A stretch of DNA of 64,000 bases. Source: Pyropia yezoensis. Taxonomy: Eukaryota > Rhodophyta > Bangiophyceae > Bangiales > Bangiaceae. This document shows, piece after piece, positions 7,496-58,208 of this stretch (within the stretch, counting starts at the first letter, position 1; each line of letters begins with the position of its first letter). A program made the translations under genes and the position numbers. The notes beneath the pieces are model-generated. The model searched no databases and had not been told where the DNA came from. It saw nothing but the letters and a program-made list of their open reading frames with translations. Where the stretch lies: positions 27,938,894 through 28,002,893 of the forward strand of contig CM020618.1 of the NCBI GenBank assembly GCA_009829735.1, read 5' to 3'.

Positions 7496-7526
<31 letters not shown>

Positions 7527-15138: not shown

Positions 15139-15409
15139 CGGGAGGAGGACGGGGTGAGGGGGGGCGAGGGGGGGGATGTAGGCGAACCAGCCACACGTCG
15201 AAGGCGGGCGGACGACGCCGCCACGCGGTGGCACCGCCGGCGTCCACGGGTGCGTGCCGCACGCGCCGCGGCAGGGCACGGCCGGTGGGCACCGCCGTCG
15301 CCGCTCGCACGGCGGGGAAGAACACACGCAGCGAACGCAGGGGCCGGGCGAGCGGGTGGTGGGGGGGAGTGGGAGGGTGGGGGGGGTGGGCAGGCGCGGC
15401 CGAGGAAGC

Positions 15410-15480
15410 GGGCGGGCTGGCGGGCGGGCGGGCGGGCGGGCGGGCGGGCGGGCAGGCGGGCGGGCGGGCGGGCGGGCGGG
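15410..15480. repeat. GGGC simple-sequence array
   Basis: Around 70 bases of GGGC/GGCG repeats with one interruption (GGCAGGCGGG). On the plus strand the regular G triplets could form G-quadruplexes. A similar GGGC-rich tract lies at about 34780-34845. Confidence 0.85.
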
Positions 15481-37077: not shown

Positions 37078-37104
37078 CGACACAGGAATTGACATTGGCT
37101 CTAA
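37078..37104 (+). repeat. Left terminal inverted repeat of copy A
   Basis: CGACACAGGA followed by ATTGACATTGGC. It is the inverted counterpart of the copy A right end and matches the left end of copy B (GACATTGGC shared). Homology between the A and B left arms continues for about 220 bp inwards. Confidence 0.75.
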
Positions 37105-37570
37105 ACGCTGAACGGGATTGAACTCGCAGAATCGCCTAAACTTCCACATGGTCGTCTGGGCTATGTCCAACGGTCTGAAGGCCGGCCTTGCCGAAATGCG
37201 AGGCCGGGGACTTCGACCAGGTCTCGCGCTCACGGCGCGAACGACGGCCGACAAGCTCTCCTGACTTGCCTGCCTCTGATGCCCTCTCTGCTGAGCTCTG
37301 TTCATGGTGTCCGATCAGCACGCGACACGCACATCCGGCAGGCTGACAAGCCGGTGGATCGGTGCTAAGGAATGCAAAAAGCAACTTGGCGATGAGCAAA
37401 GAACGTATGCCAGTCACTTCGCGTCGATATGCCTTTGGTTCCCCTGGACGCTTTGTTCAGTGCCTTTCTTCGCAGACGCTGAGTCGCTGTTGCGCTTCTC
37501 GCCGGTCCCCCTGTGCTGCTCGCCAGCGCGAATCGACGCCACCGTCCTGGGCCCGCCTGTGTACCTCTGG

Positions 37571-38520
37571 CGGCGGGGCGGTGGGGCAGTGGAGACCAGG
37601 ACTGTGGGCGAGCCCGTCGTCCTGGGCGCGTGTGCCTACCTGCGGCGGCGGGGCAGCGTCGCAGACGCGGCGGAGCTGGTGCCTCAGACATTCATGGAGT
37701 GCGACTAACCTGGCAGTGCAGCGTGGGGTGGGCGGCGGCATGAGGCGGTTTCAAGTTGTCAACTTGGAGGTGCTGCTGCCTTGGCCGGGACTTTTTCCAG
37801 CGCCGCGGTGGTGCCGAATGCACCTGCAACTGTGTGCGTGGCCATAGTGCTGGGCCTGCATGTGTCAATGCGGCGGTGTGGCAGCGTTGAGGGCGCGGCG
37901 GTGCATGTGGCGCCGACAGTTGCTGGCGTGGCGGCTAACCCAGCCGAGCTGTTTTGTGCAGGAGGGGACGCGATGCCGTGTTCGGTGATCAAGCTTGTGG
38001 TCCTGTCGCCGCTGCTGCTGGCCCCCCTTGTCCCCCGGACGATGCGGCGGGGCGGGGGGGCAGCGGCGACCACGATTATGTGCTAGGCCATCCTCCTGGG
38101 CGGGCGTGTCTACCTGCGGCCTCTTGGCAGCGTGGTGGAAGCTGCGGTGCTGGTACTACAGGCACTCGCTAGATTGCGACTCACCTGGCGGGGCAGCGTG
38201 GGGTGGGCGGCGGCATGAGGCGGTTTCAGGTTGTCAACTTTGGGTTGCTGCTGCCGCTGGCCTGGGCTTTTTGCAGCGCCGCAGTGATGAAGCATGCGCC
38301 CGCGACTGTGTGCGAGGCCACAGTGCCGGGCCTGCATGTGTCAATGCGGCGGTGTGGCAGCGTTGAGGGCGCGGCGGTGCATGTGGCGCCGACAGTTGCT
38401 GGCGTGGCGGTTAACCCAGCCGAGCTGTTTTGTGCAGGAGGGGACGCGATGCCGTGTTTGGTGGTCAAGCTTGTGGTCCTGTAGCCGCTGCTGCTGGCCC
38501 CCCTCGTCCCCCGGATGATG
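37571..38520. repeat. 475-bp tandem duplication in left arm of copy A
   Basis: Two units, about 37571-38045 and 38046-38520, align at a constant offset of 475 bases with scattered substitutions (for example GTTGAGGGCGCGGCGGTGCA in both). The units' frames are interrupted, so they look non-coding. No matching pair was found in copy B's left arm. Confidence 0.85.
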
Positions 38521-38992
38521 CCCGCGGCTGCCGCTCGCCCAAACGTTGCGGTCGCCCAACTGGGTGTGGCGCTCGAGCACTGCACTTCAAGTTGCACGGC
38601 GACTGTGGCAGGGCCACAGTGCGGGAAAAGCTCCACCATTGCCGCATCGGCGCCGCCCGGTGTGGATGGCGGGCCTGACCGCTGCCGCCCGGTCATTTTT
38701 TTTCGCACTCAGTGCGACGTCGGCACGGCTTCGGTGCTGCTTCGCAGCCCCTGTCCCTCGGTGGGTGCACCGCTACTCCCAAAGTTCCCCCGGTGTCGCC
38801 CTGCCGCAGCGTCGCATCAAGTTTTGAGCAGCATACCTGCCACATTTGCTGTGGTCGCAGCAGCGTGCCACCTCCATCCCCAGGCGGCCGTCCCCCCATG
38901 GTTGTCGCGCCTGAGTCGCGCAGACAGTTCTGCGCATATTACTCGCACCCGTAAAGAACAAGAAGAGCCCATGTTGCCAATAGCGCTAGCAA

Positions 38993-41900
38993 CTATGCTG
39001 TCTCTATCCCCTCCTCCCCAGCCCGTCCCCCCCCCCATCGTTCAATCGCCCCGCGGCGGAGCTCGTCAGGCGTATGCGGATTTTTAGAGGGCGAGGCATT
39101 GACGCCGCACCGCTCCTCCAAGTCCCGCCAGTCCGGGACGATGCTCTCAAGACGAAGCACCCGCGCTGCGTCGATGAGCTCCACGGTAGGCCAGACATTC
39201 TGCAGCGTATAGAAGTGCCAGCCCAGACGTTGACACCCATGAGCCGTCAGTACACAGCCCGGCCGGGGCGCTGCAACGCACATGCGCTTCACAACAACGC
39301 ACTGACGCCGATCGGGGCCCAACACGTCGCAAGACCAGGCGCGCCTCACCCCAATGCACCTCCCCGTTGTCGGCCTTGTAGCGCAGGTGGTCAAAGTACG
39401 GCTTCGCGTTGAACGAAGTGGTCGCCCGCAGAGACTGGATGCGCGACTGCGCGCCCCACTAAAACTTTGCGTTGAACTTGAGAGTCTTGGCGCCGACGAC
39501 GGTCTCTGCCACATCCATCTCCAACAGTGTCGGAAGATCTTGAAGAACTGGGAGAGCACTCACGACCCCCACGGCGATGCGCACCCCACGCGTGCTCATG
39601 TGCAGCACGCTGTCTGGGACAACATCCACGTCATCCACCCGCGCCGTGTGCATCGCATTGACCTGCTCTACCCGCTCCTCGTCTTCTGACACAGCATCGT
39701 CGTCGGTCTCCCCGCTTGTCAAACCACGCAGAATCTCTGTCTGCGCCTGCTTACCCCGCATCATCTGCATCGCCAGAGTGGGGCCACGCTTCTTCGAGCG
39801 CTAATACATCTTCTTGCACACCTTGTGCAGCGACTCATACCGGCTGGTGTCCCCCTCCCAAAGGTTGCCGCGGCCCTCGAGCTCGTTGCGAAGGTGCCAC
39901 ATCAATCAATGAAGCTTGGACGTATGAACCGGTCCGAGGAGCACCTGGATTGAGCGTCCGACGCAGAAGGCCGCGTCCACCATAGCAGAAGCCTGTCTCC
40001 CTGTCGTATGCACCGTGTCCGCCATGTTGTCACCACACAGCATGCCTCCTAGCTGGGCAATCTGACAGAACATGTTCTGCACCGCGTCCTGGACTGGCAT
40101 ATCCCCAAACAGCGACTGGTACGCCGTGCCGTCGCCAGTCGCTACACCGGCGGGGGGGGGGGGGACAGCCTGGTGCGCGTCCTCGTCGCCCTCGAGCCCG
40201 GGGCCGTCGTCTGAGTCGGCAGACACCGGCCCGTAGGCACCAACAGCACTCAAGTCAGCCTGGAAGTTTTTCAGGCGCTCCAGGTCAGCGGGGCCAATGA
40301 TGCCCGCGACCGTGTGAGGCCAAAAGACAGAAACGTGCCGCCAGCTGTGCCCCGTCATTGTTGCCTGCTTCTCCTCGGGAGGAATGAAGCACCCAGGCGC
40401 TGCCGGCTTAGCACGGCACCGGCGCCCCTGTTCGAACCCCCGATGGTTCAAAGCGTCGAGGGTCTGCCGCACAGAGCCCATCGTAGCCCCCTCGGACTGG
40501 GTACAGATCGCCCTCAAGAGCCCGGGGAGCCGCTGTGCCACCGTGCTCTGGACGCCAATCTTCCACACATGGAGCAGGTCGAAAGACACGACGCGGAAGT
40601 AGCTCATGCTCCCCGTAGATAGACCGTGCATGAACCCCAGCACCGGCGCAAAAGCCAGGGCGCTGTGGGCTTTGGCGAGCGGGCCGCGGAGCGACACGCG
40701 AGGATCGACCACCCGCTCCTCGGCAGCAGCGAGCTACGCCTCGAGGGTCTCCACAACGATCCGCGGCTCTGCGCGTGGCGAGTCCACAGCACAGGACGCG
40801 GAGTGGTGCACGCGGCAAAGGGAGCATATCATGGTGCTTCCACTGCCCATGAGCGCGTACAGCGAGCGCTGCTCGATGAAGTCCACCACGATGCCGCCCG
40901 CCCGCGCCACAAGAAGAACCGTGCCAACGCTCGGGATGTCCACAGGGTAGCCGGCCTCGCTCGCCCGGGAAAATCGGCGAAGGACGAGAGCCATGCAGCG
41001 TTGACGCAAGTCGTTGCGCCTGTCGCTCGCCTCCAGCTTGGCCTTGTCGGTGCGGCTGACAGCCTTCGGAATGTGTGGGATGTAACCGACGGTCACCCAA
41101 CGGCTGCCATCATCTCGCTCACTCGGGAGCTGTGCGTGGATAGGGTAGACATACGCGGTGCCGCTTCACGAAACGACGGCCGCGTCCGAGGGCAGAGAAG
41201 CAGAAAGCGGCCGTGCTCTCTGGCCATGAAGGCGCTGCACCGCGCGCACCTCGTTGACGAACATGTCGGCGTTAAGCGTCTTGGAGCGCCGAGGAGACCC
41301 ATCCGCCGCAGGCGGCGAGCGGCCCCCCTCCAAGTCCGAATTTTCAGCGAAGCGCACCGCGTTGACAGCCACATCGAGGAGGTCTCTGAAGTAAAATGTG
41401 TACGTTTTGCTGCCGACCTCAATGGGTGCCCTCATCCATTTCAGCTTCGAGAGAATGCGGTTCTGCTCGCCCCGCAAGCCTGCCACAAAGGAAGCGTCCG
41501 ACGGGAAGACGTCGGAGAAGTCGCCGCCGTCGTTCCCGCTCATAGCACCCTCAAACGAGTGAAGAAAAGACGCGAGGGCTGTCTGATCCTCACGTGACAA
41601 CCCGCTCCCGCCGGCTGTGATGGGAAAGTTCAGAAGGGACCGCAGCACAGGGCCGCGGAAGCGGGAAGGAGCCTGCCCCACGAGCGGAGACACAACAGGA
41701 GTGCACTTGGATGACTCCGGCAGGGCTTCATAATACGCCCGGAAGCGTGCGGTCACGCTGGCGACGAAAACGTTGCGGACGGCGCCGGAAATGGGGCGGG
41801 GACCTGCAAGAGTGCCCCGTGCCACCCCGTCGTTGCGAGCACGAGTGAGGAAGTCCTTCGCAGTCTCGTTCACAAATGCGCTAGCCGCCGCCGTCGTCGC

Positions 41901-42278
41901 CAGCCCCGTCCCGGCCGACGCGGCCTCGACCAGCCTCTGTCCATCCACACGCGCTGTCGATCCAACGCCGGCCAGCACGCCTCCTTCAGCATCATTTGCC
42001 ACGAAATCTTCGGTGGTCAAAACATCGACGGAAGCAGATGTGGCGGCCGCAGCCGCGGGCGCTGCACCAGTCGAGTCGGGATCCGCAAGATGGTTGGCCA
42101 CGGGCGCGTCGACCATGTGCGCGTCGACCACCGTCAGGGAGTCGTGACTGTGCGCCGCCGTGATGTGGCGTTGGCGCGTGACGGTCGAAAAAAATGCGCG
42201 GGGACAAAACAGGCACTTGAGCGCCAGCTTAGAGACACCAGCCCGTGGGGTCGGCGAAGAAAGCCGTGAGGGAGCCAT
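38993..42278 (-). pseudogene. Transposase of copy A (zinc-finger, CACTA/Plavaka-like), decayed
   Basis: The coding line can be followed from an ATG at 42278 (MAPSRLSSP) to about 38993 by comparison with copy B. An N-terminal C2H2 finger (CLFC-x12-H-x4-H) is followed by conserved blocks SRFRGPVLRSLLNF, TYTFYFRDLLDVA, RWVTVGYIPHI, DLLHVWKIGV and SWRHVSVFWPH. DLLHVWKIG resembles the D-x-x-H-x-x-K motif of CACTA-type transposases, and the block around VTVGYIP resembles the one following the first catalytic Asp in Plavaka proteins. About half a dozen in-frame stops plus at least one frameshift interrupt it, while the reading frame is otherwise largely kept, which is the pattern of neutral decay by point mutation. 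Identity to copy B looks around 60-65 percent by eye. Confidence 0.8.
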
Positions 42279-42449
42279 GCGCACAGGGAATGAACAGAGT
42301 GAAGCCTAAGGGACGTGGTCGCTGTTCATGGTTGGCTGGCTGACGAGCTGCGCGGGGGCGATGCCCCGACGTTTGAAGTACTGGTAGCTGTCACCGGCCG
42401 CTCCTTAAGTGGTGCGACGTCCACTGGGGAAGCTCGACCCGAAGCTGAC

Positions 42450-43480
42450 ACACCCGACAGCCACCACCAACCGCAGGCCCCCACCACAACCTTTCCTAGC
42501 ACCTGCGCGACGCGGTCAACCGCGACCGACGTGGCGGTGGCTGAGGACACTACCATCAAAGCAGACAGATCACGCGCCACGGTGGGTTATGACAACGGTC
42601 AAGGCCGACGCCAGCCAACGCACGCGACGGCAGCAGGAAGAATTCACGCAATCGTTCCGGTGGCCGCCTCGGGCGGCTACGACCAGACGCCGCAACGTGC
42701 CCAAGCGGGCCATCTCAGCCTCCATGTGGGGGCCACTGGACCAGCACGGCCTCACCCGTCAATGCACATGACGGAGCCAACACAACCCGGGGGTGACCAC
42801 CAGCCGCCAACTGGGGACGCCACAAATGGCAACACCCGCCGGCAGGTGGGTGTCCCCAGCCAAATCCGCCCACGGCCACCGCTCGACGCAACAGCACAAG
42901 GTGCCAAAAGAGGTTGTGCCCCTCCAGCTGCACCGTAACGCCGCAACTCGCGGCACCCGCCGGCAGGCGGTTGCAAGCCGCGCAGGCCACCAACACCAGC
43001 CGTCCCACACAACAGCAGCAGGCGCCAACCTTGGGGACCACCAGCGGCCACTGCGCAACTCCACAGCCGGCGGCACCTCCCGGCGGGTGGCTGCCACCCG
43101 CCCTGTCAACCCACACCCGCCGTCGCATACAAAGGTGGCAGGCGTCAACCGGGGGGACCGTCAGCAGCCACCGCACATTGTCATAAATGCCAACACCGGG
43201 TGGCAGGAGGATGGCACCCCCCCAGTCGACCCACAACTGCAGACCGCCACGACAGCAAAAGGCGTCAAGAAAGGTTGTCCACCACCAGCGTCCGCGCCAC
43301 ACCACAGCTTGTGGTACCCGCCGGCAGGTGGCTGCTACCAGCCCAGTCCATCACCACCCCCCGTCCGCCACGCCGGCAGTAGACGGCACCCCTGGTTGAC
43401 CGCCGCCCCTGGCGCCAAGCCACAGCGGGAGTCCACCACCCTCTCATGCCATATGCCGGCCCGCTGGCCTCGCAGACGTC
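42450..43480. repeat. Tandem array of about 120-bp units between the divergent transposon genes
   Basis: The landmark CACCCGCCGGCAGGTGG and variants recurs at about 42833, 42954, 43074, 43191 and 43315, a spacing close to 120 bases; weaker units extend left to about 42.45 kb. Units also share GTTGGGGACCACCAGC-like and CCACACAACAGCAG-like stretches. They are diverged, so the array is old. Its place between the two start codons suggests a promoter or a binding region for a transposon-encoded protein (inference). Confidence 0.78.
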
Positions 43481-44560
43481 GCCGGACGCAGCCACCGCAA
43501 TCAGCCCCGCCCCAGCGCCAGCCGTCCCCCCATACTGAAACAGCCAGCGCCGTGCTACGACTACTCAGGTAACACCCAGGTGACACTGCAAGACGATGGC
43601 CGAAGGGACCACCTCGCTCCATCAGGGACCGCCACAGCGCGCGACTCCCGCGCGTGTGGGCGTGTGCACGTCAAGCATGACAGTCGAATGGCAGCGGAGC
43701 CATGTAGAGCGCTCCATGGCGTGGCAGAAGATCCCGTCGAGAGGTTTTACCTCATGATGACGCCGCCTTCGGGGATCCACCTGCAGGCAAGAGGAGCAAA
43801 ATGACGGGCGTACCTGCCCGGCCCCCGACGAAGACAACGAGCCATGGTTGGCACCGCGCCGGCTGGAAGGTGCAGCTCTCGTCAATTAAACCGGATTGTT
43901 CTCTGCATCCAATGATCATCGATTGGGTGTCGCCCCACACTTTCAGAACACGCCTTGCACCAATCAACAGTCGGTACCATATGTGTAAGAAGTCGGAATT
44001 TGTTTACAACTTCAGTCGGGCTCCGGCCGCCACATGGGATCTTGGCCGTCAGCAACTTACGCGTCAACCAGGCGGGTGCACACCTCACCGCCGTCTTCGA
44101 TCATGCACACCTCTTCGCAGGCGTACCTTTTACCACGCAGCGGAACATACAGCACCACAATCTGGAGCCCGGTGGCGGTAAGACAGCAATGGCGACCACT
44201 CGCGACGGCGCTGGTTGCAAAGATGGCTCGTAGATAGCGGGGGCCGCACGTGCCGCCAGCCTGATGCTCTGAGGGGAGGTGCCGCAACGCGCAGGGGACC
44301 TTCCGCGGGGGAGCCTCGCGTGCGTGCCCCGCTAGTCCTACTGGGGGAGCTTTTCAGTTGTGCGGATGGTGTACGTGACCGCGATGGTTGCCGGCATTCA
44401 TAGCGCTTAACAAGAGCTCTGACTCGCGAACGGCTCAATTTCGCCCGCTTTTCCAACCCGCCTCGTCCTCGTGCCCACTGCTGTCCCTACTTGTCTGCCT
44501 TGGACCCCTTCTCACCGCCTTCCAACTCTCTCCGCTCCCCTCCTCGCCCGACGGAGCACC

Positions 44561-46375
44561 ATGGCGTCGGGGTCGGGCTTCCACTACTCACATGACGACA
44601 GGCGGCGGATGGTGGTGACTACAAACGCAAATGGGTCGTCGTCGGCGTCCGCGTTCTTCAACGGCGGCGCAGCAGCTCTTGCCAGTGGCGTTTCGTGGCC
44701 GAGTCCCTCTCACGGCGCCCACCCTGCGTATACGGGATGGATGAGGCATGCGGTGCAAGCTCTACCGGTGCCACCCGCTTACAGAGCTACTCTCCCGACC
44801 CCTCCTGCTCCTGTCGTCGTTCCTAATGGGGGTCGTGCATACGCGGTTGGAAGTTCTCTTCCACCCGCATGGTCTACGCGGGCTGCCGCCCCTCCTCCTG
44901 GGACACCTACGTCTCCTGCGCGTGGCCCACACAATGGCCGTCGAACGGCACGCCCATCAATCGCGCGGACTCGGCCACGCTCGCCAGTACCGCAGGGGCC
45001 AGCCGGACCCCCTGGAGCAGACACTGCGGAGGCTACGGACGCTGAGCAAGAGGAGCTGCGCATCGGCGACGTCCTGAGCGCGGTTCAGCGCAGCTTTGCC
45101 ACCGTGCCAGCCGCCCTGACGGAGCAGCGCGGTAAGGTGGCTGATATGGGGCGGCAGGTCGCTGCTGGCATCGCCAATGCAGACGCGCTTGCGGTTGCTT
45201 TGGAGCACAGCATGGCGGCGCACGCCGTCGACCGTGCGATGCTCATCAAGATGTCATAGCAGCTCGACGAGGTCACGCAGCACCTTGCCGCAGAAGACGA
45301 TGAGGCCACGGAGCCAGCGCCCGCGGAGGACCCGTACGCATGGGTAAAGCCCGTACGCAAGGACTTGCTGCGTGTGCTGAAGGAAGAGTTCATCCACGCG
45401 GAAGCGGCGTGGGATGTGTCCAAGCCAATGGTGGACCACCGCACCACACTGGTGAAGCTGGTTTGCGAGCGTCTGGGCCTGACGGAAGCTGAGGCCAACG
45501 CCAAGCTGCTGACGCGCATCCCCTCCGGTAAGAGGAAGGACAGCAAGGCCCCGGCCACGATCGTGGCGTATCGCTACCTCAAGCGCGCCATCTCGCACTT
45601 CTACGAGAACCTCGGCAAGGGCGCCGTGAAGGCCTTCGTGTCGTCCATTAACGAGAGCACTAGCATGGGCAAGCAGATCCCTGTTAGGAGCACCAAGACG
45701 CGGACTGTCTTAACGCTTACCAGTGAGGAAGCCGGGCACCTACGCCATGGAGACCGGTTCATCCATGAGGCGTATGGACACAAGGCGCTGCTCAGCGGGG
45801 CCAAGAACATGATCGCTTCTATTACGGCGAGCGGGCTTTTCGAGGGGACTGAGGAGGGCTGCGCAGACAAGACTGTCGTGTGCTTGCTGGCCCACATGGC
45901 CTTCGTCGTGACGAAGGTGCGCGAGCATCTGCGCCATCGTGCGCACGGTGGCTCCGCGCCGGCGCTCATGGACACTGTGGGCATGAATGAGGGCCATCGC
46001 GAGCCGTGGCTGCGCGAGCTCGTCACGCTCGACGCCGTTTACTGGCGCCTTTCCGCGGCGAGCAATGGGCTCCGCCTGATTGACGCAGCGTCACCTGCTC
46101 GGGCGTCGGCAGTGCGAATCGCAGGTCCAGTAGCGGATGGGGCGTCTTCTGGCGGGGGAGATGCGGCGGGTATTCGAACTGGCATTCAGGTGGCGGATGC
46201 CGCTGCCGCCGGTGTTCCGGTGGCTGCCGCGGCTGCCGGCCGCGGTACGATGGCTGCGGCAGCTGCCGGTGGAGGACGTGGAGCTCGTCCCGCTGCCTCA
46301 GCGGTGCCTGGCGCGGGCAGAGGGGCAATGTCGACGATGATGCCGGATGGGGGGCTGCTTGAGGACATGGACTAG
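44561..46375 (+). pseudogene. Accessory protein gene of copy A, one internal stop
   Basis: Opens at the ATG at 44561 (MASGSGFHYSHDDRRRM) and runs in one frame for about 604 codons with a single in-frame TAG roughly 230 codons in. No known family is recognised. A Pro/Ser/Ala-rich disordered region (about 30-160) is followed by an acidic patch and a helical, probably coiled-coil stretch ending near the stop. The C-terminal half looks globular: AWDVSKPMVDHRTTLVKLV, KAPATIVAYRYLKRAISHFY, KAFVSSINESTSMGKQIP, GHREPWLRELVTLDAVYW. It ends in a Gly/Ala-rich tail and LLEDMD. Copy B encodes a clear homologue over the whole length, also divergent from the transposase. By analogy with two-gene CACTA elements it may be a terminal-repeat-binding or regulatory protein, but that is inference. 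Confidence 0.75.
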
Positions 46376-47091
46376 AGAGCGGTGCGCCCTTCCCGGACGA
46401 CAGTCGCACGCAACCTGTCGCCAATCGCGCCCGGGTAGGTTGATTTCAGCTGGACACCGCGAGAGGCGGTGTGGGAAGGGCGGCGGTGGGCACGGCCGGG
46501 GTGTGTGCGTCTGGTGCAGATCGTTTGTGTATGGACTAGCCGGTGATCGAACGGGAAGGGAGTGTGCAGGGTGGCGGCGGGCACTGCCACGGTGTACACG
46601 TTTGGAGCAGCTGGGGCCGCACAAAGAGGTGGAGCAGGCAGGGGGACGGCGAGCTCTGCCTGGGTGTTTACGTCTGGGCCAGCCGGGATGACGCGGGGGG
46701 TGTGGCGTCGTTGTAGACTTACGCCAAGACCTTGTCGGGGGCCAGCACATTGAGAAGAGGGATCCTGTGGTGGTAGCGAAGCCGTTTTTCTGTTCTTTCC
46801 ACGCCGCACCAGCCGATGTAGCGGAGCTACGCCATGACCCCCATCCTGCCACGCCGGCCATATGTACCGCTAAACGAGCACTAGTGGAGCCGTCTCCATT
46901 AGCACCCTTGATTAAGGTCTCACGCGAGCCTGTGCACAGCGAAGTCATGCCGGGGCCAAGTGGGGTTGTTCTCTGGCTTCGAGGGGAGTCTCCATGTGGC
47001 CCACGAGACGGCGCTCTCAACCGCTACGAAAATCCGAAATTTGAGTTCCCACCGTGTGTCGACAGGTAACTGCACGCAGCCCGAAAAATCG

Positions 47092-47120
47092 CTTAGTCCG
47101 AATTGTCAGATCCTGTGACG
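47092..47120 (-). repeat. Right terminal inverted repeat of copy A
   Basis: Read on the minus strand from 47120 it begins CGTCACAGGATCTGACAATT, pairing with the copy A left end at 37078. The adjoining inner sequence CCGAAAAATCGC on the plus strand is shared with the right end of copy B. Confidence 0.78.
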
Positions 47121-47239
47121 ACGGGGCGTAGGCCAGACCCCCGCCGCGCGGCAGCGGCGGCCTACGAGACGTGGCCGAGCAGCCTCGCAACCCGCCGAGA
47201 TCGACGACGGCGCGAGCAAACCACGCAGGGCTCCCCCCC

Positions 47240-47266
47240 CGTCACGGGAAATGACATTGGCACTAA
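47240..47266 (+). repeat. Left terminal inverted repeat of copy B
   Basis: CGTCACGGGAAATGACATTG, continuing GCACTAA. It shares GACATTGGC with the left end of copy A and CGTCACRGGAWMTG with all other ends. Confidence 0.78.
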
Positions 47267-49132
47267 TCCCTGGACATGGCTGCACTGGCGAAGTCGCGTA
47301 AACTAGCATGTGGGCGGCCAGGCATTGTGCAACGGTCTGATGGCGGGACTTGCCGAAATCAAAGGTCTGCCCTGTCGGCCAAGTCTCGGGGTCGTCGCGC
47401 GTCATCGTTTTGCCGAGGGGCTCGCATGGTCTCAGGTCATGCTGGTCTCTGATCGTCTTTCTGCTGAGCTCTGCCGCCGAGCCCCAGCCGAGGTCCAATG
47501 AGCAGTCGACACGCACTCTGCCTGAACCCAAGCTCTTTCGTTATGTGCACATTAAGACGAAGGGGGGCTATTAAGTAGACATAGGGCCCCAGCCGCCCGG
47601 CGCCCACCCGCCCAACCAGTGCCTTCGGCGCGCGGCGGCTCTCGTCGGCGTGGTTCTGCGGGGCTTTCTTCTCTCTTGGCCCAGTTGGCACTTCTCCCTC
47701 GTGCTGCTGCTGTCGCCTGCCCACGCCCGAGGGCCAGTTGCCGCTGGGGATGGCGGCCGCGGCGGCGACGAAGCAACGACGCGCTGTGCAATGCTGGCGG
47801 CGGCGCTCTCTCTGTTGCGGGGACGTGCCGACGACAGCGGCGCCGTGTGTTGGCGCCAAAGCGCTCAGGTGCTAGCCGACCTAGCGAAGGCGGCGGCGCA
47901 TTCAGCGACGGGAGCCACAGCTGTGGCTCTGCAGCGGGCTCTCTCGCCCCGTTCTAGGCCACTGCCCTCTTGCTCTCGCCCGTCCGCGCATCACTACCGA
48001 TTGCTGCTCACCATGGGCGGCCTCGGCGGCATCCTCGCGACGACGATGCGAATTGCGTCAGTGCAGGGTGCATGGCCCTGTGCCGACGACTGGTCATGCA
48101 GTCGGCGAATGCGGCACAGCCCCCACACCCGACGTCTGAGGCAGCCGGGTAGACGTGCAGGTCGATGGCGATCGCGGCGGCAGTGGTCGCGTCGGCTCCA
48201 ACGGTGGGGTGGTGGGGCGCTTGGAGCCGACCGGGTGGAGGCGATCGCGGCGGCAGCGGCCGTGGCGCAGGTGCAAGAGCCCCTGGTTGGCGCGCCCCTT
48301 CTGGGTGTCGGTCTTAGCGGGCACGTCATGCTGCCGACGCCGTCGGCCACCGGGGCATGTGGCTGGGCCCGGGGTGGTAGCAGCAGGGGCGGCTCCGGAG
48401 GCTTACCTGGACCGGGCGACCCCGGCCTGCCCGGCCTACCACTTCCCGGGCCGCTCTCGGCGGTGGGGGCAGCGGTGGAGGCCGCCACCACCGCCGCCTT
48501 CCCCCGCGTGTTGGAACCGCTATAGGAGGTCGTCGTCGATGTATAGGCTGGATTTATTCGGGACGTCCTTATCGCATGTGCCAACCCATTGACGACGCAC
48601 GGGGTGGTGCTGAACGTCGACGTTGGGGACGATGGCGGCGTCAATGGCGGCGTCAATGGCGGAGTCGATGGTGGCGGGGGGGTTGGGCTCTCCGATGGCG
48701 GTTGCGGCCGCGGTCGTGATCTTCAAAGGCGCGCGCCCTCCTCACCGCCCGGGCGCCAGCGGTGCCTCTATGGCAAGTAATAGCGTCGCCGACGGCGGTG
48801 CGCAGCGAGGCCGGCTTGGCCCTTTGTCTTAGCGAACGTAACGGGCGGCGATGGGCGCACGGTGAGAGGCTCGGCGACGGAGTGGGGGGATCCGAGAGTG
48901 TGAAACAGGGCGCAGAACTCTTTGTAGGAGGAAACCGCGGCGTGCACACCCGCTTTGTCCTTGACAGACAAGTCAACGCTCTTAAGACCATGAAAGAACT
49001 ATCATGCTACTCTCCTCCTGTCTGGTCCACACACGTTACTTCTCCGAGAAGCATTTCTACAGGCCACACCGACGGTGCGCCCACTCTTCGCACGCAAAAG
49101 TGTCAGTGGTCACCGACAGCAGGTCTAGACGT

Positions 49133-52100
49133 TCACGGATAAAAGACGTTGACAAAGAAGCGCTCAAGACGGAACTCGGCAGCGGAAGTCACCTTATTGG
49201 ATGGCATCACGTCCAGCCCGTGTCGGTCCGCCATGTCTCGCCAGTCCGGTACGATGTTCTCCAGTCGCATCAGCCGCCCAATGTCCAGGACTTCAATGGT
49301 GGGCCAGATGGCGTCCGGTGTCTGGAAGTGCCACGCCAGGCACTGACACCCATGCTTCGTCAGCACGCAGCCAGGGTCCGGCGCCACAACGCACATCCGC
49401 CGCACAACGACGGCGTACCCAAGGCGAGAAGGGCCCACACGACACAGCACGAAACGGGCTTCACCCCAGCGTACTTCCCCGTTGTCGCCGTGGTAGCGCA
49501 CGTGGTCTTACCAAGGCTTCCTGTCGAAAGAAGAAGTGGCACGCAGGTACTGCACGCGCGTCGCAGCGCCCCACTCAAACCGTCCATAAAACTTCAGCGT
49601 CTTGGCCACGGCAACCGACTCCGAAACGTCCATCTCGAGAAGGTGGGGAAGGTCTTGTAGACCCGGAAGTGCGCTCAAGTCCCCAACCGCAACACGCACC
49701 CCACGTGTGCTCATGCCGAGCACGGAGGGCGGGACAAACGTCACGTCCTCCACGTGAGCAAGGTCCACCGCGTTGCGCTCCTCCAGGCGCTCCTCGTCAT
49801 CAGTCACGTCTTCTTCGTCGCTGTCGTCGTTGGGGAGACCACGGAGGATCTCGGTCCGGGCCTGCTCGCCTCGCATCATCTGTAGCGCCAGGGTCGGGCC
49901 GCGCTTGTTGGATCGCAAGTACATTTTCTTGCAGACCTTGTGGAGCGACTCGTTGGCGCTGGTGTCCCCCTCCCACAGGCTTCCGCGGCCCTCCAACTCT
50001 GCACGCAAGTGCCGCATGATGCGATGGAGCTTGATGGTATGTACGGGGCCGAGCAGCACTTGGGCACGCCGGCCGACTTCTTGCGCAGCTTCCACCATCG
50101 CTGCCACCTGTGTACCCGTTGTGAGAACGGTATCGGCCACATTGTCGCCGCAAAACATGCCGCCGAGCTTAGCCACTCGGCAAAACAGATCCTGCACCGC
50201 GTCCTCCACCGCCACGTTGGCGAAGAGTGCATGATAAGGCGTGCCAATGCCAGTGTTGACGCCGGACGGGACAGGCTGGTGGGCGTCTTCGTCGGCACTA
50301 TCCAGCTCGAAGCTGTCGTCACCGTCATCGGTTGTCCCCTCTGCAGCATTCTCCGTCCCCACTGTGGGAAGAGCCACGTGAAGCCGCTCCGGGTCCGCAG
50401 GGCCAATGAGAGCCGCGATGATGTGCGGCCAGAAAACTGAAAAGTGGCGCCAGCTCTGCCCCGTCATGGTGGCCTGCTTCTCTTTGGACGGCACAAAGCA
50501 CCCTGGCGCCGCAGGTTTGACGCGGCAGCGGCGCCCCAACTCAAAGGCTCGCTGGTTGAGCACAGTCAGCGTCTGCTCCACGGGTCCCAACACAGCGCCC
50601 TCTCCCGCAGTGCAGACGGCCTTGAGACAGCCAGGTACGCGTAGTGCAAGTGTCCGCAGCACGCCAATCTTCCACACATGGAGTAGGTCAAGCGACATGA
50701 CGCCAAAGTAGTTCATATTGCCGGTAGACAGACCGTGCATGGCGCCCAGCGCCGGAATAAACGCCAGAGCACTGTGTGCCTTGGCCAACAGCTGGCGAAG
50801 AGAGACCCGTGGATCAACAACGCGCCGCTTGGCGGCAGCAATCTGGGCCTCGAGCGTCTCGACGACGTTTTGCGGGTCGGCGTCCGGCACGTCAGCTGAG
50901 CAGCAGACGGTATTACGTACGCGACACTGCGTACAGATCATCTTGCTGCCCGAGCCCATCAGCGCGAACATGGAGCGCTCCTCGAGGTAATCGACAACGA
51001 TGCCCGCCAACCCGCGCAACAAGGAGGACCGTGCCTATGCCTGGGAGGTCAACTGAAAATCCAGTCTCACTCGCCCGCGCAAAGCGGCGCAAGACAACAG
51101 CGAGACAGCGCTGCAGCAGGTCGTTACGACTGTCACTGACGGCAAGCTTGGCCTTGTCCGTCCTGGCAGCGGCCTTGTAGATGTGCGGGATGTAGCCGAC
51201 CGTCATCCACCTGCTGCCCTCATCGCGCACGCTCGGAATCTGGGCTCGAAGAGGGTACGCGTACGCGGTGCCACCCCAGGACAACACGGCAGCGTCTGCG
51301 TGCAGGGACACGAACAGCGGACGCGCACGCTGGCCATGAAGCCTAACCACCGTCCTGACCTCAGCCAGAAACACGTCCGAGTCTAACGACGATGAGCGCC
51401 GAGAAGACCCGTCCTCTGCAGGCTCCAAAGGGCCCCCATCCAGGTCGAGCGTGGTCGCCGACCTAACCGCCGTCAAAGCTGCATCAAGAAGGTCTCGGTA
51501 GTAAAAGATGCGCGTTCTGCCGCCGACCTCAATCGGAACCTTGGGCCACTTCAGGGTCGCTAGGACGCGGTTCTGCTCCGCACGCAGCCCCGTCACAAAG
51601 GACGAAGCTGTCTCAAACTCGTCCGAGAAGGCAGCACGGTCAGTGCCGTGCGCCCCTCCCTCGACGCCATGTAGCAGAGACGCAAACTGTATCTGGTCCG
51701 TCCGAGACAGGCCGCACCCGCCCGCTCCTAGTGCAAACTTTAGTACGGACCGCATAACCGGTCCGCGGAATCGGGAAGAGCCTTGCGTGAATATAGGAGA
51801 TACCGCGGGCGTAGAGAGAGACGCCTCCGGCAAGGAGTCGTAGTACCCACGGATGCGTGCGGCCACACTGGTGGCAAAAAACATGCCGGACCGCGCCCGC
51901 CGGCGGGCGGGGCCCTGCGATAGCTCCTCGGGCCACTCCATCGTTGCGCTGCCGAGTGACAACTTCCTCAGCCGACTTGTTGACAAAGGCTGCCGCCGCA
52001 GCCGTTTCCGCCAGCCCAGTCCCAGAAGATGCCGCCGCCGCCAAGCTGGCGGCAGGAGGTGGAACTGCCGAGGAGGCTGCAGGTTCATCAGCTACAGACC

Positions 52101-52392
52101 CACCGCCTGCACCTGCGGGAGCCTGCATGGAGCCCTCGGCATCAATCACAGCGCCGTTGAATGTGTCCGCCACGGCCGCGGAGGCGGCAAGCCCAAGAGC
52201 TCCTCCGCCAGAGGAAGGCACCAAGTCAGACCGCGGCGCACGTGGCAGCAAGGGGTTGTCGTTTGCGTGAATTGCCATCATGTGACGTTGCCGTGAGAGG
52301 GCAGACGAAAAGCCTCGCAGACAAAAGATGCACTTGTGCGCAGGCCGGCCAAGTCCTAGCCAGGAGGGAGGGGAGGGAGGTGAAGGGGCCAT
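49133..52392 (-). pseudogene. Transposase of copy B (zinc-finger, CACTA/Plavaka-like), decayed
   Basis: Starts at an ATG at 52392 (MAPSPPSPPSWLGLG) and can be followed to the stop at 49133, roughly 1080 codons. N-terminal C2H2 finger (KCIFC, then H-x4-H in RHMMAIH). Conserved blocks: SRFRGPVMRSVLKF, FYYRDLLDAALTAV, RWMTVGYIPHIYKA, a CxxC in MICTQCRVR, DLLHVWKIGVLRTL, FELGRRCRVKPAAPGCF, SWRHFSVFWPHI, ESLHKVCKKMYLRSNKRGP, and a C-terminal block NIVPDWRDMADRHG. DLLHVWKIG and the VGYIP block are what relate it to CACTA/Plavaka transposases; catalytic residues cannot be fixed without an alignment. Two single-base frameshifts and one in-frame stop separate it from a continuous frame when compared with copy A. 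One frameshift lies in a T run and one in a G run, so part of the damage could be sequencing error. Confidence 0.82.
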
Positions 52393-53721
52393 GCTCAAAG
52401 ATAGAGCAGCGAGGCGCTCAGCGTGGTCCACGCGGTCAGTCGTGGTGGATTGGAAGTCGTTGTACATTTCCCAGGTAGCGGAGGCGCGCCTCTTGTAGCT
52501 CGGTGCCACAGGCAGGCGTGCGTGCAGGCAGCGGCTTCGGTGGGGAGCAACGTCGGCCCCCCTCGAGCCAGTCGCTCCCTCTGGGTGCCAGAGAGTCCTC
52601 GACGTAGACTAGCTGGGCGACGCCACCCCTGCAGACACCCTCCGGCGCACGGGGAGCTCTACTGACGGATGCCGCAGTCTGCAACTGCTGTCAGCTACCA
52701 CAGGCACATCTCTTGAGCGACAGCGGCGGTGACTGAACCCCGCAGCACCCACCCCGCCCCAGCGTCCACCGTCGCAGCTCAGGTGTGCAGGAGGATGAGC
52801 CACGCCCTCCGCCGAGGCCCCACGCGAGAAGCTGTGGCATCCGCTGCCGCTGGGAGGTACTACTTCCTCCGGGGGCGTCCTCACGACGCCATTTCAGGAG
52901 GCCAACGCACAGGTGGTGCTCCCAGCCAGCTCTCTGAGCCCCACAGTTGGCGACACCCACCGTATGCGGTGCAGGGCCTGGTAATATGCGTCGCAAGTCC
53001 ATGCGCCGCATCGAGAGCTGTTTGCCAATGCGGCGAGAAACAGTGGGCGACACGTCGCGGCCGGGTGGACCACCGCCACGAACGATAGGCACCCGCCTCT
53101 CAGTAGCACGACCAAGCGTCGCCGTGGCACACCCCACAACGGTCAGCCACTGTCGCGGGCACCGCCCCGCCGCGGCAAAAGCGCTGAGGAGGGAAATGCG
53201 CCAAGTGAGGACGAGACGCAGCGCGCAACTGCGCTGCCTTGCATTGAGCTGCCTCGATGGCAGCCGCGAGAGTCCGCTGAACCCCGCAAGTGACGGTGCG
53301 CCACACGCAGCGAAAAGCAGCGCTCTTTGGGGCGCCCACGTCGCATACGCCACCGGGCTGCTGCGGCGCGGCGTGGATCGCGCCGCAACAGCGCGAGTCG
53401 TCAGCCTGAAGCACCTCCAGGCCCAGGTACGGATGGTGCCACCTCGTCGTCGGACTCGGGCTGGCACAGCTGGTGGACCGGGACACCTGCACGCGAGGCG
53501 GGTGGCGCGAGTGAGCGGCACCTGCCCGCAACTGGCGAAGGTGATCCAGGTAAAACCCAGCACTGAAAGCGACTGTGACTCAGAAAGCCACAGCTTTTGT
53601 CCTTTGACGAACCAGTCAGAATCGCTTGTGTGTTGTTTCATTCGTTTCGAGTCACAGTGCGCCAATGAACGACCGAGTCAGGTGTAAAAAATATGCACAT
53701 TTTGCGCTGGATTTCATGGTT

Positions 53722-53768
53722 CGAAAAACTAGCCAGCACTTGCGGCAGCAGGTGCTGGCTAGTTTTCG
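53722..53768. repeat. Strong hairpin in the spacer of copy B
   Basis: Arms of about 21 bases, CGAAAAACTAGCCAGCACTT on the left and its near-perfect reverse complement on the right, close on a 4-base loop with one bulge and one G-T pair. Weaker outer complementarity (GTCACAGTGCG near 53651 against CGCACTGGCCCGTGAC near 53797-53812) could extend it to a foldback of about 160 bp. It lies between the two divergent genes, closer to the accessory gene. Confidence 0.8.
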
Positions 53769-54393
53769 TCGAGATCTCACCCGCGTTGCGCCCCAACGCA
53801 CTGGCCCGTGACGCACACCAATCCCACTCGCCCGTGTCGCTCGTCCACCCACTCGCCACTCCACCTCCACGGGTGCCACCACGGACACTTTCTGTGCCAC
53901 CATCGTTGCAGCTGGGCAAGACACCACTCAGTGATGGTGACCCATGGTTGTGCGCGGTCTCCGCGACCGCCCGAGGCGGTCACCCACGAATGGTACGTGT
54001 AGCATCGAAGGCTCATCGAGAGCGGGCTGTATGTGCGACGACGCTGGAAGGGCGCGCGCGGCACCCGCCACGCGCCGCCCGTCGCCAACCGCGAGCTTTC
54101 CGCCGCGCGGCGCCTGCCCCGCTTTCTTCTCGGCGCGTTGGACCCACAGTGGACCATGGCCTCGACAGCGTCGACATGCAGGGTGACTCGAGGCCCCGGG
54201 GCTGACGTGGCTTCGCTGGCTACAGTACCGCTTCTTAAGGCTCTGTTCTGACCGTCTACTGGGTCTCCCCGTGTCCCATCGCCACCTGTTACCTCAATCT
54301 TTGTGCGCTATCCACACTGCTGGAACTCTTCAACACGTGCATCCCCACCACCTCTTCTGCCACACCGCTCCCTGCAACTGCCCGCGCATCACT

Positions 54394-56325
54394 ATGGCGT
54401 CGGGTCAGGGCTTTCACTTCTCGCAGGACGAGACGCGCCGGACGGTCATGACCGCCGACACGAACGAGCAGTCGTCGGCGGCGCCGTTCTACAGTGGCGG
54501 TACTGCGGCCATAGCCAGCGGCGGCTCGTGGCCTACTGTCCCGCAGGGACCGCCCTTGCCCAACCCTGCCTGGGCGGCCCATTCTCTGCCAGGGGCAAGT
54601 GTCGCTGCCGAGCACGGGCGGCGCAGCGCTGTGCTTCCTGCACCGCCAGTGGCGGTCGTTGTGCCTAGCGGCGCTCGTCCTCGGGCTGAGCGCGCTGCCA
54701 CCCCTCCTCCTGCGCCTCCAGCACCCTCTACTCAACGGACGCGCAATGGACGTCGGCCTTCGCGCGCTTTGAACATGCAGCAGCGGTCTCGCTCTCCCCT
54801 CCCACCCGGCTCTGCGGGTCCTGCCGTCCTGGAGTCGGCCCCTTGGACGGACGCCGAGGAAGACGATCTCGGGGTCCGTGACGTCCTCACCATGGTCAAG
54901 CGGAGCTTCGCGACGGTGCGGGGCGCGTTGACGGAGCAGCGCGCAAAGACTGACGACATGGCGCGCCAGGTGGCCGCCGGTATGTCGAAGATCGATGCAC
55001 TGGCTGTCGCGCTGGAGCAGAGCATGGCGGCGCATGCCGCTTCCCAGGGGACTCTGATGGACATAAACGATCGCATCCAGCAAATCAAGGATGCTCTGAA
55101 CGACGGCAGTGGCGCTCAAGAGCCAGCGGCTGCCGTCGAGGACTCCTTTGCTTGGGTGCCGGACTTGCGTGTATGTGGTCTCGCGGCGAGTGGGTCTGGT
55201 TGGCACAAAGGCGTCTGGAAGCGAGGGGCGTGTCAGGACATCGTCCGAATGGTGCCCAACATGATGGCTCGGGCGGATTGCGTTGAGTGTGCTTGAGTGG
55301 GTTGCTGTTGCGGTCTTGAACAACAACTCACATCTCACCGTGTCTTCTTTCTTGACCTGCTTCTCGCATTGCTCGCTTGGCGGGGACCACGACGACAGAA
55401 GGAGCTCTTGGCCATCCTCGCAGATGACTTCAGCAACGCCAAGTCGGCGTGGGACATCTGCAAGCCCACGGAGGAGCACCACGCCAAACTCGTGGTGCTG
55501 CTCATGGAGAGCCAGGGAGTATCCCCGGACGAGGCTACTGAGATGCTTCGTTCGCGCATGCCGTCGCGGAAGCGGAGTGGCAGCAAGGCGCCAGCAACGG
55601 TCGTTGTTTACCGCTGCATTAAGCGCGCCGTGTCTCATTTTTACGAGAGTTTGGGCAAGGCTGCCGTGAAGGCGTTTGTCTCGTCCGTCAACGAGTCTAC
55701 CGGAATGGGAAAGCAGCTTCCTTTCAAGAAGAGCAAGACTCGCACGGTTCTGACCCTCTCCCCAACGGACGCCGCCCACCTCTTGGAGGGTGACCGCTTC
55801 ATCGGTGAGGCCTTCTGCCACAAGGCTCTGCTGGCGGGGCTCGCCAACATGGTGGCGTCCATTGGCGCCGGCCATCTCCTTGAGGAGCCGGCACCCGGTG
55901 GCGGGGAGCCGACGATGGTGTGCCTGCTGGGGCACATGGCCTTTGTCGTCGTGAAGGTACGGGAGCATCTCAAGCTCCGTGCGTGTGAGGGCCCCGCGGG
56001 GACCTACTATGGGCAGCTCCCAGGTGGCATCAATGAGGGCCACCGTGAGCCGTGGATTCGGGAGCTGGTGCGGCTGGACTCTGTATACTGGCGTCTGTCC
56101 GCACCCCGCAACGGCCTGCGTCTTGCGGACGCGACCTCCTCCACGCGTGCGTCCCCGGACCGTCCAGCCCCCCCCGCTCTGACCGGGCTAGCTGGTGAGA
56201 ATGCAGCTGCAGCTGCGGCGCCTGGAGGCGGCGGTGCCGCTCCACAGGCGGTCGTCGGCGGGGGCGGCGCCGGCTACGACGCGATGGTGACGCAGGGTGG
56301 GGGACTGTTGGAGCAGCTGGACTGA
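54394..56325 (+). CDS. Accessory protein gene of copy B, possible intron
   Basis: Opens at the ATG at 54394 (MASGQGFHFSQDETRRTVM) and is homologous to the copy A accessory gene to its end (GGGLLEQLD, stop at 56325). Order: disordered Pro/Ala region with SRSPLPPGS, acidic patch WTDAEEDD, predicted coiled coil (about 160-245), then a conserved globular half with KAPATVVVYRCIKRAVSHFY, KAFVSSVNESTGMGKQLP and GHREPWIRELVRLDSVYWRL. Between FAWV (about 55155) and KELLAIL (55399) is a segment absent from copy A that contains stops. It ends in GACAG and could be an intron: a GTGCCG donor at 55156 would keep the frame, whereas the better-looking GTATGT donor at 55169 would not. It may therefore be a spliced gene or an inserted, broken one. 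No known domain is recognised. Confidence 0.7.
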
Positions 56326-56831
56326 GAGCGATGATGTGCGCGCATCAGGGAGGTGTAGCACAGTCAGCGTGCGACTGCGTGCCTGACGGTGTCGATGCGT
56401 GAGGGGGGTGAGGTAGCGCTCGTAGCAGGGCGGCGTGTAACGCCGGCTGGATGCCGATGACGACCTGCACAGCAGTAGACAGCTGCGCACACCCTGCGAA
56501 TAGCACTCGTCCTGTAGCCCAGCTAAATGCATGTTTTTCCACCCTCCGATCCGCATACGCCAGCTGCCGTGGCACTGCCATGCGACCCACCACATGTCAC
56601 CAGCACGGCTGCTAAATATGGCCTGCATTAAGAAACGCGTTAAGCACCCACGCGCGTGCTTAGCGAATGACGTGCACAGCGTCGCGTCGATGAGGTCACC
56701 TGGTTTCCTGGCCGTGTCTCCTGACGAGTCGCGAGCGTGCCCACGAGAGAGTGAACTCAACCGCGACGAAAATCGGCTAGTCTTATGGCCCACAGCTCTC
56801 GGCCCACCACCGAAGCGAGGCCGAAAAATCG

Positions 56832-56860
56832 CGTCGTTCAAATCAGCATATCCTGTGACG
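56832..56860 (-). repeat. Right terminal inverted repeat of copy B
   Basis: Read on the minus strand from 56860 it begins CGTCACAGGATATGCTGATT. Just inside on the plus strand lies CCGAAAAATCGC, also present at the right end of copy A, and a second CGAAAATC motif lies about 50 bp further in at both right ends. Confidence 0.75.
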
Positions 56861-58208
56861 CCAGCACGGTGTAGGAGACGGAGAGAGATCCGCCCTGTTC
56901 CTCTGGTATCTACTCTGGGTTGCGTGAAGGTTGGGGGGGGGGGTGGGGGGCTCGCCACCGCCACCACCACTGCCACCCCCACCGCCACTGCCGCGGCCGC
57001 CTTCCGTCGCCGCCTTCCTCCTGCAGCCCGGATGGGCAGCTGCTGCAGCGTCGCTTGCGCCCAATGGTTGCTCCAGGAACAAGGGCGGGACGCCGCTGCC
57101 CTGTCGCGCCCACTGACTTCTTGTGCTGCTCGCGAGGCGACCCGCCTGCAGGCACACCAAAAGTGTCCCCTCCGCGGCGGCCAGCTGTCCCCTTGCGTTT
57201 GATCTCGCAGAGGATGCTCGCCCGAGACGACCACGAGCCGGGGCAGCTAGGCGGTGACGCTACTGACCACAACGCACCGGTGGAGGTCGGGCAGGCGAGG
57301 GGGGAAGGGAGGGGGGGGGGGGAGCGAGGGCGGGGGGGGGATCGGGGGGGCTGCTGCCGCCACCGCTGCCGCCGCCGCCGCCGCCTCTTAACGCAACCAA
57401 ATAGAGAGACAGCCACCCAACCCCGCCTCCCTGCGCCGCTGTAGCCCCCTTGGTCAAGCGCCGTGGACCCTCCCCGATGCACCCGACAGGGCCAATAGGC
57501 GGGCTGGTGTGCCTCCTTGGCCGCGCCCCTCGACGGGCGGTCGCCGTCGTCCCCCGAGTCTCGACGGCCGCCGCAGCGCCCGGCGGCTGTTTGCTGCTTG
57601 CCCATCCTGCCCACGAGCGCCTGAGGTGATCCCAACGTCAGACGAGCGCGCCGACCCCTCTTGTTTTTTGTTTTCTTCTCTTTTTGTACAGGTACCTCCG
57701 AGCGCCACCGGCTCGCCGCCGCTGCCTCGCGCGCCGCGCCGGCTGGGGACGTGGGTGCGTCGGCCGCCGCAGCGGCCATGGCCTGCCAAGCAACGACCCT
57801 CGACGTGGCCAACGATCGTGGGCAAAAGCGGGAAGCGGAGAGGGGGAGGGGGGGTTGCATCCCCGGCACGCAAATGGTGGCGTGCGCGCCCCCCAACGGA
57901 CCAATTAAGTGGCGCCCGTCCCCCAGCCCCCCCCGCCCCCCTCCCCCCAAGGTCGGTGGTGTGAAGTGGGGCAAGAGGCGGGGGGGAGGAGGAAGGGAGA
58001 CCAGAGGCGGAGCCCCCCCCAGCCGGGGACGAGCGGGACAAGGTGCGGGCCAGACGGCAGGCACCGCAGACCCCTCCCCCTCCTACCCCAACGCGCTGGA
58101 ACGGCCTAGACGGCTCCCCGCCTTCCACGCCTGCACCCCCATCCCGCTCACGCTCTCTCCGTGGCTCCCTTGTCCCCGCCCGTGCGGTCGTGATCCGCTT
58201 GCGACCAC

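What the first reader, a model, noticed from the sequence alone, without database searches (positions are those of the whole stretch)
37078..56860. Two tandem copies of an apparently undescribed two-gene DNA transposon family
Copies A and B share terminal repeats, orientation and a divergent gene pair: a zinc-finger transposase and an accessory gene with no known domain. The transposases look roughly 60-65 percent identical, so the copies are old relatives, not a recent duplication, yet both kept the accessory gene over its full length. That argues the accessory protein is needed for transposition or its control. Motifs (DLLHVWKIG, a VGYIP block) suggest the CACTA/Plavaka group, but a divergent, roughly 10-kb, bipartite element of this kind is not one I know in an alga.
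Basis: partly seen in the sequence, partly recalled or inferred. Interest (0 to 1): 0.82.

Follow-up and report, generated by a model that had tools for sequence, protein, structure and literature searches.

The report
Two relic two-gene Plavaka-like transposons
Two old, broken copies of a roughly 10-kb jumping gene lie side by side here; each carries a transposase that looks related to the fungal Plavaka group and a second, divergently transcribed gene of unknown family that selection preserved for a long time, so it probably helped the element move or stay active.

Summary
Element A is 37078-47120, element B 47240-56860, same orientation, 119 bp apart. Both ends align in register from base 1; three of four ends read CGTCACRGGA; 2-bp flanks match (AC, CC). 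Each encodes a divergent pair: a ~1,085-aa transposase (62.0% identical over 1,046 residues) and a 567-604-codon accessory gene (53.4% over 560). Differences pile up at third codon positions in both (rough dN/dS 0.21 and 0.25), so both were under purifying selection after A and B parted. The transposase matches Pfam Plavaka marginally (best 26.4 bits, gathering 26.3) and shows CMCT-type motifs; no CACTA or KDZ profile matched. EnSpm-Plavaka elements are reported from one green alga (PMC12633428), and two-gene elements are classical for CACTA. New here: a divergent accessory gene without recognisable domain, conserved beside a Plavaka-like transposase. I read it as a TnpA-like partner, by inference. 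Copy number and host identity could not be tested.

The parts
37078..47120 (.). Element A (10,043 bp), ends CGACACAGGA ... TCCTGTGACG
   Evidence: Boundaries from in-register alignment with B starting at base 1 at both ends and terminal sequences
47240..56860 (.). Element B (9,621 bp), ends CGTCACGGGA ... TCCTGTGACG
37076..37077 (.). Putative 2-bp target duplication AC, left of A (right copy AC at 47121-47122)
   Evidence: sequence
47238..47239 (.). Putative 2-bp target duplication CC, left of B (right copy CC at 56861-56862)
   Evidence: sequence
47121..47239 (.). 119-bp spacer between A and B
   Evidence: sequence
38996..42278 (-). Transposase of A, broken: stops at 41166, 40734, 39906, 39801, 39459 and a frameshift near 39320; N-terminal C2H2-type finger; C-terminal end uncertain beyond about 39059
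   Evidence: Plavaka 23.3 bits as composite and 26.4 bits as trimmed piece, but no match as full Q/W read-through
49139..52392 (-). Transposase of B, broken: frameshifts near 51877 and 51003, stop at 49508; 1,085 aa as read-through composite
   Evidence: Plavaka 15.6 bits as composite and 18.9 bits trimmed
44561..46375 (+). Accessory gene of A, 604 codons, one in-frame TAG at 45257
54394..56325 (+). Accessory gene of B: exon 54394-55170, inferred intron 55171-55398 (GTATGT...ACAG, phase 0, 228 bp), exon 55399-56325; 567 codons without a stop
   Evidence: A reads straight through the same point
37078..37300 (.). Conserved left terminal region of A, matching 47240-47473 of B
46999..47120 (.). 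Conserved right terminal region of A, matching 56739-56860 of B; CGAAAAATCG and CGAAAATC lie at the same distances from the end in both

Best explanation
A and B are two dead copies of one family of cut-and-paste DNA transposons of the Plavaka-like branch of the CMCT group (CACTA/EnSpm-Mirage-Chapaev-Transib). Shown here: shared in-register ends, matching 2-bp flanks, and a divergent pair of genes that both evolved under purifying selection after the copies' lineages parted. Inferred: the long protein, with an N-terminal C2H2-type finger and a DDE core carrying C2C and H4H motifs, binds the conserved ends, cuts them and inserts the element with a 2-bp stagger. Inferred, less sure: the accessory protein (a stretch that looks like a coiled coil, a strongly basic conserved core) acts like plant TnpA, binding DNA near the ends, bringing them together or keeping the promoter active. 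The two copies landed 119 bp apart, and both transposases later decayed.
For: In-register ends with no match outside on the left; exact end motif 3 times in 64 kb, all at ends, expected 0.41; matching 2-bp flanks in 2 of 2 copies. Same gene order and strands in both. Differences at codon positions 1/2/3 are 0.268/0.210/0.532 (transposase) and 0.305/0.259/0.580 (accessory); NG86 dN/dS about 0.21 and 0.25. Plavaka is the best Pfam match of both transposase composites: A E 4.5e-5, 23.3 bits; B E 0.0097, 15.6 bits; trimmed A 26.4 bits, E 5e-6, against a gathering score of 26.3; trimmed B 18.9 bits, E 0.00097; 0 of 2 reversed controls match Plavaka. D365, D466, C485-x2-C488, H785-x4-H790 and E808/E815 are invariant (A composite numbering) and fit the C(2)C and H(3-4)H signature given for the CMCT clade including Plavaka (PMC12730594, passages). 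Three of four ends read CGTCA (outward end), one base from the PlavakaB end CATCA..TGATG, which has 2 or 3 bp duplications (section read). The accessory core has net charge +12 and +14 over 74 residues.
Against: The Plavaka match is marginal: it reaches the curated cut-off only for one trimmed piece with X at the stops. The same piece with Q/W there gives 25.5 bits, the full-length A read-through with Q/W gave no Plavaka match, and no single open piece of A (2 tried) or B matched. A reversed control gave an unrelated family at 15.6 bits, E 0.013, so B's 15.6-bit match alone is at noise level. Structure predictions failed (pLDDT 40.8 and 30.1), so the DDE fold is unproven. The two ends of one copy are not significantly alike by alignment (51 and 148 of 200 resamplings), and A's left end is two bases from CATCA. 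A 2-bp duplication is weak evidence. Nothing shows directly that the accessory protein binds DNA.
Confidence: 0.7

Rival explanations
1. The element is as described, but the accessory protein is not part of the cut-and-paste machinery; it is an anti-silencing, regulatory or passenger gene that serves the element in another way.
For: Transposons of fungi and algae carry accessory genes outside the cut-and-paste machinery, e.g. TET/JBP in some fungal Plavaka families and a ParB-like/methyltransferase gene transcribed opposite to the transposase in Sola1 of Ectocarpus (PMC12477816, passage). No Transposase_24 (TnpA) or other domain matched the accessory protein.
Against: A freely captured passenger would not be expected at the same place, orientation and full length in two copies this diverged, with dN/dS about 0.25. 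tnpA is itself said to be highly diverged between species (PMC8195511, passage), so lack of a match does not exclude a TnpA-like role.
Confidence: 0.3
2. A standard EnSpm/CACTA element with TnpD and TnpA and 3-bp duplications, not a Plavaka-like one.
For: Read from CACRGGA inwards, the ends have the CA..TG form common in the CMCT clade; two-gene layout; long transposase.
Against: No Transposase_21 or Transposase_24 match; at CAC..GTG boundaries there is no 3-bp duplication in either copy (CGA/ACG and CGT/ACG); Plavaka is the match instead.
Confidence: 0.12
3. A tandem duplication of an ordinary two-gene host locus, not a transposon.
For: Two adjacent copies in the same orientation.
Against: Transposase match; conserved short ends at both sides with no match outside on the left and only a weak one on the right; no A/B match in the DNA between the two genes.
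Confidence: 0.03

Closest known systems
Plavaka DNA transposons of fungi (PlavakaA and PlavakaB; CMCT clade), Pfam PF18759
   Same: Transposase profile match; C2C and H4H motifs between second D and E; 2-bp flanking repeat; end CGTCA against CATCA of PlavakaB
   Different: Match is only at the Pfam cut-off; ends differ by one base (three ends) or two (A left) from PlavakaB and fully from PlavakaA (TGT..ACA); the second gene shows no domain, whereas some fungal Plavaka carry a TET/JBP dioxygenase
EnSpm-Plavaka elements of the green alga Auxenochlorella (PMC12633428, preprint)
   Same: Same named group, reported in an alga
   Different: The main text names it once (passages read); gene content and ends could not be compared because figures and supplements were not available
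Plavaka giant repeats of Amoebidium (PMC11244446, passages read)
   Same: Plavaka transposase beside further genes outside fungi
   Different: Clusters up to 50 kb with many genes, many encoding tyrosine recombinases; not a two-gene element
En/Spm (CACTA) with TnpD and TnpA (PMC8195511, passages read)
   Same: Two-protein element; helper protein highly variable in sequence
   Different: Divergent genes here against overlapping transcripts in Spm; no CACTA end, no 3-bp duplication, no Transposase_21/24 match
Sola1-1_Ec32 of Ectocarpus with an opposite-strand accessory gene (PMC12477816, passage read)
   Same: Large algal DNA transposon with an accessory gene on the other strand
   Different: Different superfamily; its accessory is a ParB-like/DNA methyltransferase protein, here no domain is found

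Membership tests
Plavaka | Transposase matches the Plavaka profile (PF18759) | tested here: inconclusive
   Trimmed A with X at stops 26.4 bits against gathering 26.3; same piece with Q/W 25.5; A composite 23.3; trimmed B 18.9; B composite 15.6; no match for the full Q/W read-through of A or for single open pieces of A and B; 0 of 2 reversed controls match Plavaka, one gave an unrelated 15.6-bit row
Plavaka | DDE with C(2)C and H(3-4)H between second D and E (CMCT signature, PMC12730594) | tested here: met
   D466, C485-x2-C488, H785-x4-H790, E808 or E815, invariant between A and B; assigned by eye, no fold support
Plavaka | Ends TGT..ACA (PlavakaA) or CATCA..TGATG (PlavakaB) | tested here: not met
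   CGTCA at three ends (one base from PlavakaB), CGACA at A's left end; hence called Plavaka-like and not filed as PlavakaA or PlavakaB
Plavaka | 2-bp (or 2-3 bp) target duplication | tested here: met
   AC/AC and CC/CC in 2 of 2 copies; no empty site available, so weak
EnSpm/CACTA | CAC..GTG ends with 3-bp duplication | tested here: not met
   No 3-bp duplication at CAC..GTG in either copy
EnSpm/CACTA | Transposase_21 (TnpD) and Transposase_24 (TnpA) domains | tested here: not met
   No match with max E 10 for the composites; HMMER's filters drop most rows above about 0.1
KDZ (Kyakuja-Dileera-Zisupton) | KDZ transposase domain | tested here: not met
   No match in Pfam with max E 10; that Pfam holds a KDZ model is recalled, not checked
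DNA transposon family | Dispersed copies with the same ends | not testable with these tools
   No host genome is held; 2 copies in this window

The most novel reading that the evidence does not exclude
The accessory protein founds a new family of transposition partners: a probably helical, basic DNA-binding protein encoded divergently from a Plavaka-like transposase and required for its activity, an independent counterpart of plant TnpA.
Probability: 0.3. Interest if true: 0.6.

Novelty: new variant of a known kind. Interest (0 to 1): 0.4.

Why it matters
Plavaka-like elements are little described outside fungi: 11 papers of the searched library hold the word and 10 were listed, among them one on a green alga and one on the animal relative Amoebidium. 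A helper gene kept under selection beside such a transposase would suggest that two-protein control, known from plant CACTA elements, also exists in this branch, and it would give testable partners for excision assays.

Tried and rejected
Own-genome search: no genome is held. Relatives in viral contigs: none in 4 scans, two for the transposase and two for the accessory protein; in prokaryote genomes: none in 2 scans for the transposase. These are not collections of eukaryote genomes, so this says little. PDB sequence searches gave only rows at E 0.67 or worse. NCBIfam gave none for three open pieces. AlphaFold models of the accessory core (pLDDT 40.8) and of A's transposase (30.1) were useless, and no fold search was run. 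ANTAR, Virilizer, Spidroin, spectrin, Gemin6 and similar Pfam rows are weak, far under their cut-offs. Stronger decay of transposases than of accessory genes (9 lesions against 1) was considered as a sign of longer retention of the accessory gene; P = 0.084, so not claimed. Subterminal repeats: the best shared 8-mer, CTGTGCAC, occurs 3 times in the four 300-bp ends and 0 times elsewhere in the elements, and CGAAAAATCG and CGAAAATC lie at matching places at both right ends; too few to call a TnpA-type array. Other window ORFs: 28 were put to Pfam; 5 of them matched a family at E up to 0.01 (all), none a transposase. Row dropped: the C-terminal piece of B was left out of the alignment for the structure job because A's row did not reach that far and it had been misaligned.
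Full report
The window is 64 kb of GC-rich DNA (59-75% GC in 2-kb steps) with eukaryotic-type genes and no genome held for it. The finding covers two units that self-BLAST shows as direct copies, about 10.1 kb apart in their transposase parts and 9.8-10.0 kb apart in their accessory parts.

Boundaries. Comparing 300 bp at each end, the left ends of A and B align from offset 0 over 223/234 bp (score 96; maximum of 200 resamplings 28), and the right ends from offset 0 over 122 bp (50; maximum 28). The DNA just outside does not match on the left (112 of 200 resamplings reach the score), and on the right only weakly (11 of 200). This puts A at 37078-47120 and B at 47240-56860. The end motif CGTCACRGGA occurs exactly three times in the window, all at element ends (expected 0.41; 1 of 100 shuffles reaches 3). 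The fourth end, A's left, has one mismatch, and at one mismatch the motif is at chance level (12 against 11.8). Opposite ends of one copy are not significantly similar by alignment (51 of 200 resamplings for A, 148 of 200 for B), so the inverted repeat is short: the local alignment covers 14 bp in B and about 30 bp, imperfect, in A. The two bases outside each copy are the same on both sides: AC/AC and CC/CC. By hand estimate (no call) this would happen by chance in about half a percent of cases with the boundary fixed.

Genes. On the minus strand each copy has a transposase, starting MAPS in both (42278 and 52392). A has stops at 41166, 40734, 39906, 39801 and 39459 and a frameshift near 39320; B has frameshifts near 51877 and 51003 and a stop at 49508. 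On the plus strand, starting 2.0-2.3 kb away and diverging, each has an accessory gene (44561-46375 in A; 54394-56325 in B). A's has one TAG. B's is open over 567 codons if a 228-bp stretch with GTATGT and ACAG borders is an intron; A's coding sequence runs straight through this point without a gap. The intron is inferred from sequence only.

Selection. Over 1,046 aligned transposase residues identity is 62.0% and the fractions that differ at codon positions 1, 2 and 3 are 0.268, 0.210 and 0.532; over 560 accessory residues 53.4% and 0.305, 0.259, 0.580. NG86 gives dN 0.283, dS 1.364 and dN 0.365, dS 1.484; a second method (YN00) failed with an error for both. dS is near saturation, so the ratios of about 0.21 and 0.25 are rough, but the codon-position pattern is clear. 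Apart from the left terminal 121 bp, the non-coding DNA gave no A/B match in that BLAST; the right terminal match appeared only in the finer comparison. Both genes were therefore kept for a long time after the two lineages parted, and decay came later.

What the transposase is. Plavaka (PF18759) is the best Pfam match of both composites: A 23.3 bits, E 4.5e-5; B 15.6 bits, E 0.0097. A 341-residue piece of A reaches 26.4 bits with X at the stops (gathering 26.3) and 25.5 bits with Q/W there; a 292-residue piece of B reaches 18.9 bits; two reversed pieces give no Plavaka match, though one gives an unrelated family at 15.6 bits, E 0.013, which shows that B's 15.6 bits alone would mean nothing. 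Also against it, a full-length A read-through with Q/W at the stops gave no Plavaka match, and neither did the separate open pieces of A and B. The order D365, D466, C485-x2-C488, H785-x4-H790, E808 or E815 (A numbering; invariant between A and B) fits the signature that a 2025 paper gives for the CMCT clade, including Plavaka (PMC12730594; passages; its section 3.2.2 read). That paper gives PlavakaB ends as CATCA..TGATG with 2 or 3 bp duplications; here CGTCA at three ends and CGACA at the fourth, with 2 bp. A finger C-x2-C-x12-H-x4-H (counted by eye) sits at the N terminus of both; Pfam sees it weakly in B (E 0.021 and 0.031) and not in the A composite. I call the family Plavaka-like and do not file it as PlavakaA or PlavakaB.

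What the accessory protein is. No Pfam or NCBIfam family beyond weak rows, nothing useful in the PDB by sequence, no usable model. It has a proline-rich N-terminal part with a basic patch, a stretch that looks like a coiled coil (by eye), a conserved core with net charge +12 and +14 over 74 residues, and an Ala/Gly-rich tail ending GGLLE-x2-D. For plant CACTA elements the literature has two proteins, the transposase TnpD and the subterminal-repeat binder TnpA, and calls tnpA highly diverged between species (PMC8195511, passages). A TnpA-like partner is the simplest reading. The main rival is an accessory function outside cut-and-paste, as with TET/JBP genes in some fungal Plavaka families (PMC12730594) or the opposite-strand ParB-like/methyltransferase gene of Ectocarpus Sola1 (PMC12477816, passage).

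Novelty. The word Plavaka occurs in 11 papers of the searched library, 10 of them listed. One is on a green alga, Auxenochlorella, and mentions potentially active EnSpm-Plavaka transposons once (PMC12633428, passages); one describes Plavaka-flanked gene clusters in Amoebidium (PMC11244446, passages). I saw no description of a divergent accessory gene of this kind in the listings or in the passages read; no search was aimed at the accessory protein by name, since it has none, and subscription papers and Repbase were not searchable. Hence 'new variant of a known kind', with moderate interest.

Noticed in passing
55171-55398: Inferred 228-bp phase-0 GT-AG intron in B's accessory gene that is absent from A: intron gain or loss between two copies of one transposon family; the stretch showed no second copy in the window self-BLAST.
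   Followed up: partly
28474-31422 +: A single uninterrupted 982-aa open frame with the domains of eukaryotic nitrate reductase; no intron is needed in this frame.
   Followed up: no
13412-16036 -: 874-aa open frame with a C-terminal Hint (hedgehog/intein-type) module, E 1.8e-26.
   Followed up: no
53725-53766: 42-nt palindrome (90%) between the two divergent genes of B; the self-BLAST shows none in A. It contains CGAAAA and GCTAGT words that also occur near B's right end.
   Followed up: partly
37570-38521: 475-bp tandem duplication, 87% identical, in A's left non-coding region; no match in B.
   Followed up: no
42787-43429: Diverged repeats with a period near 120 bp between the two genes of A, not found in B.
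   Followed up: no
4319-7660 -, 8506-10605 + and 31913-34450 -: Open frames with an actin-family domain, with ankyrin repeats, and with a bZIP-like stretch just under its cut-off.
   Followed up: no
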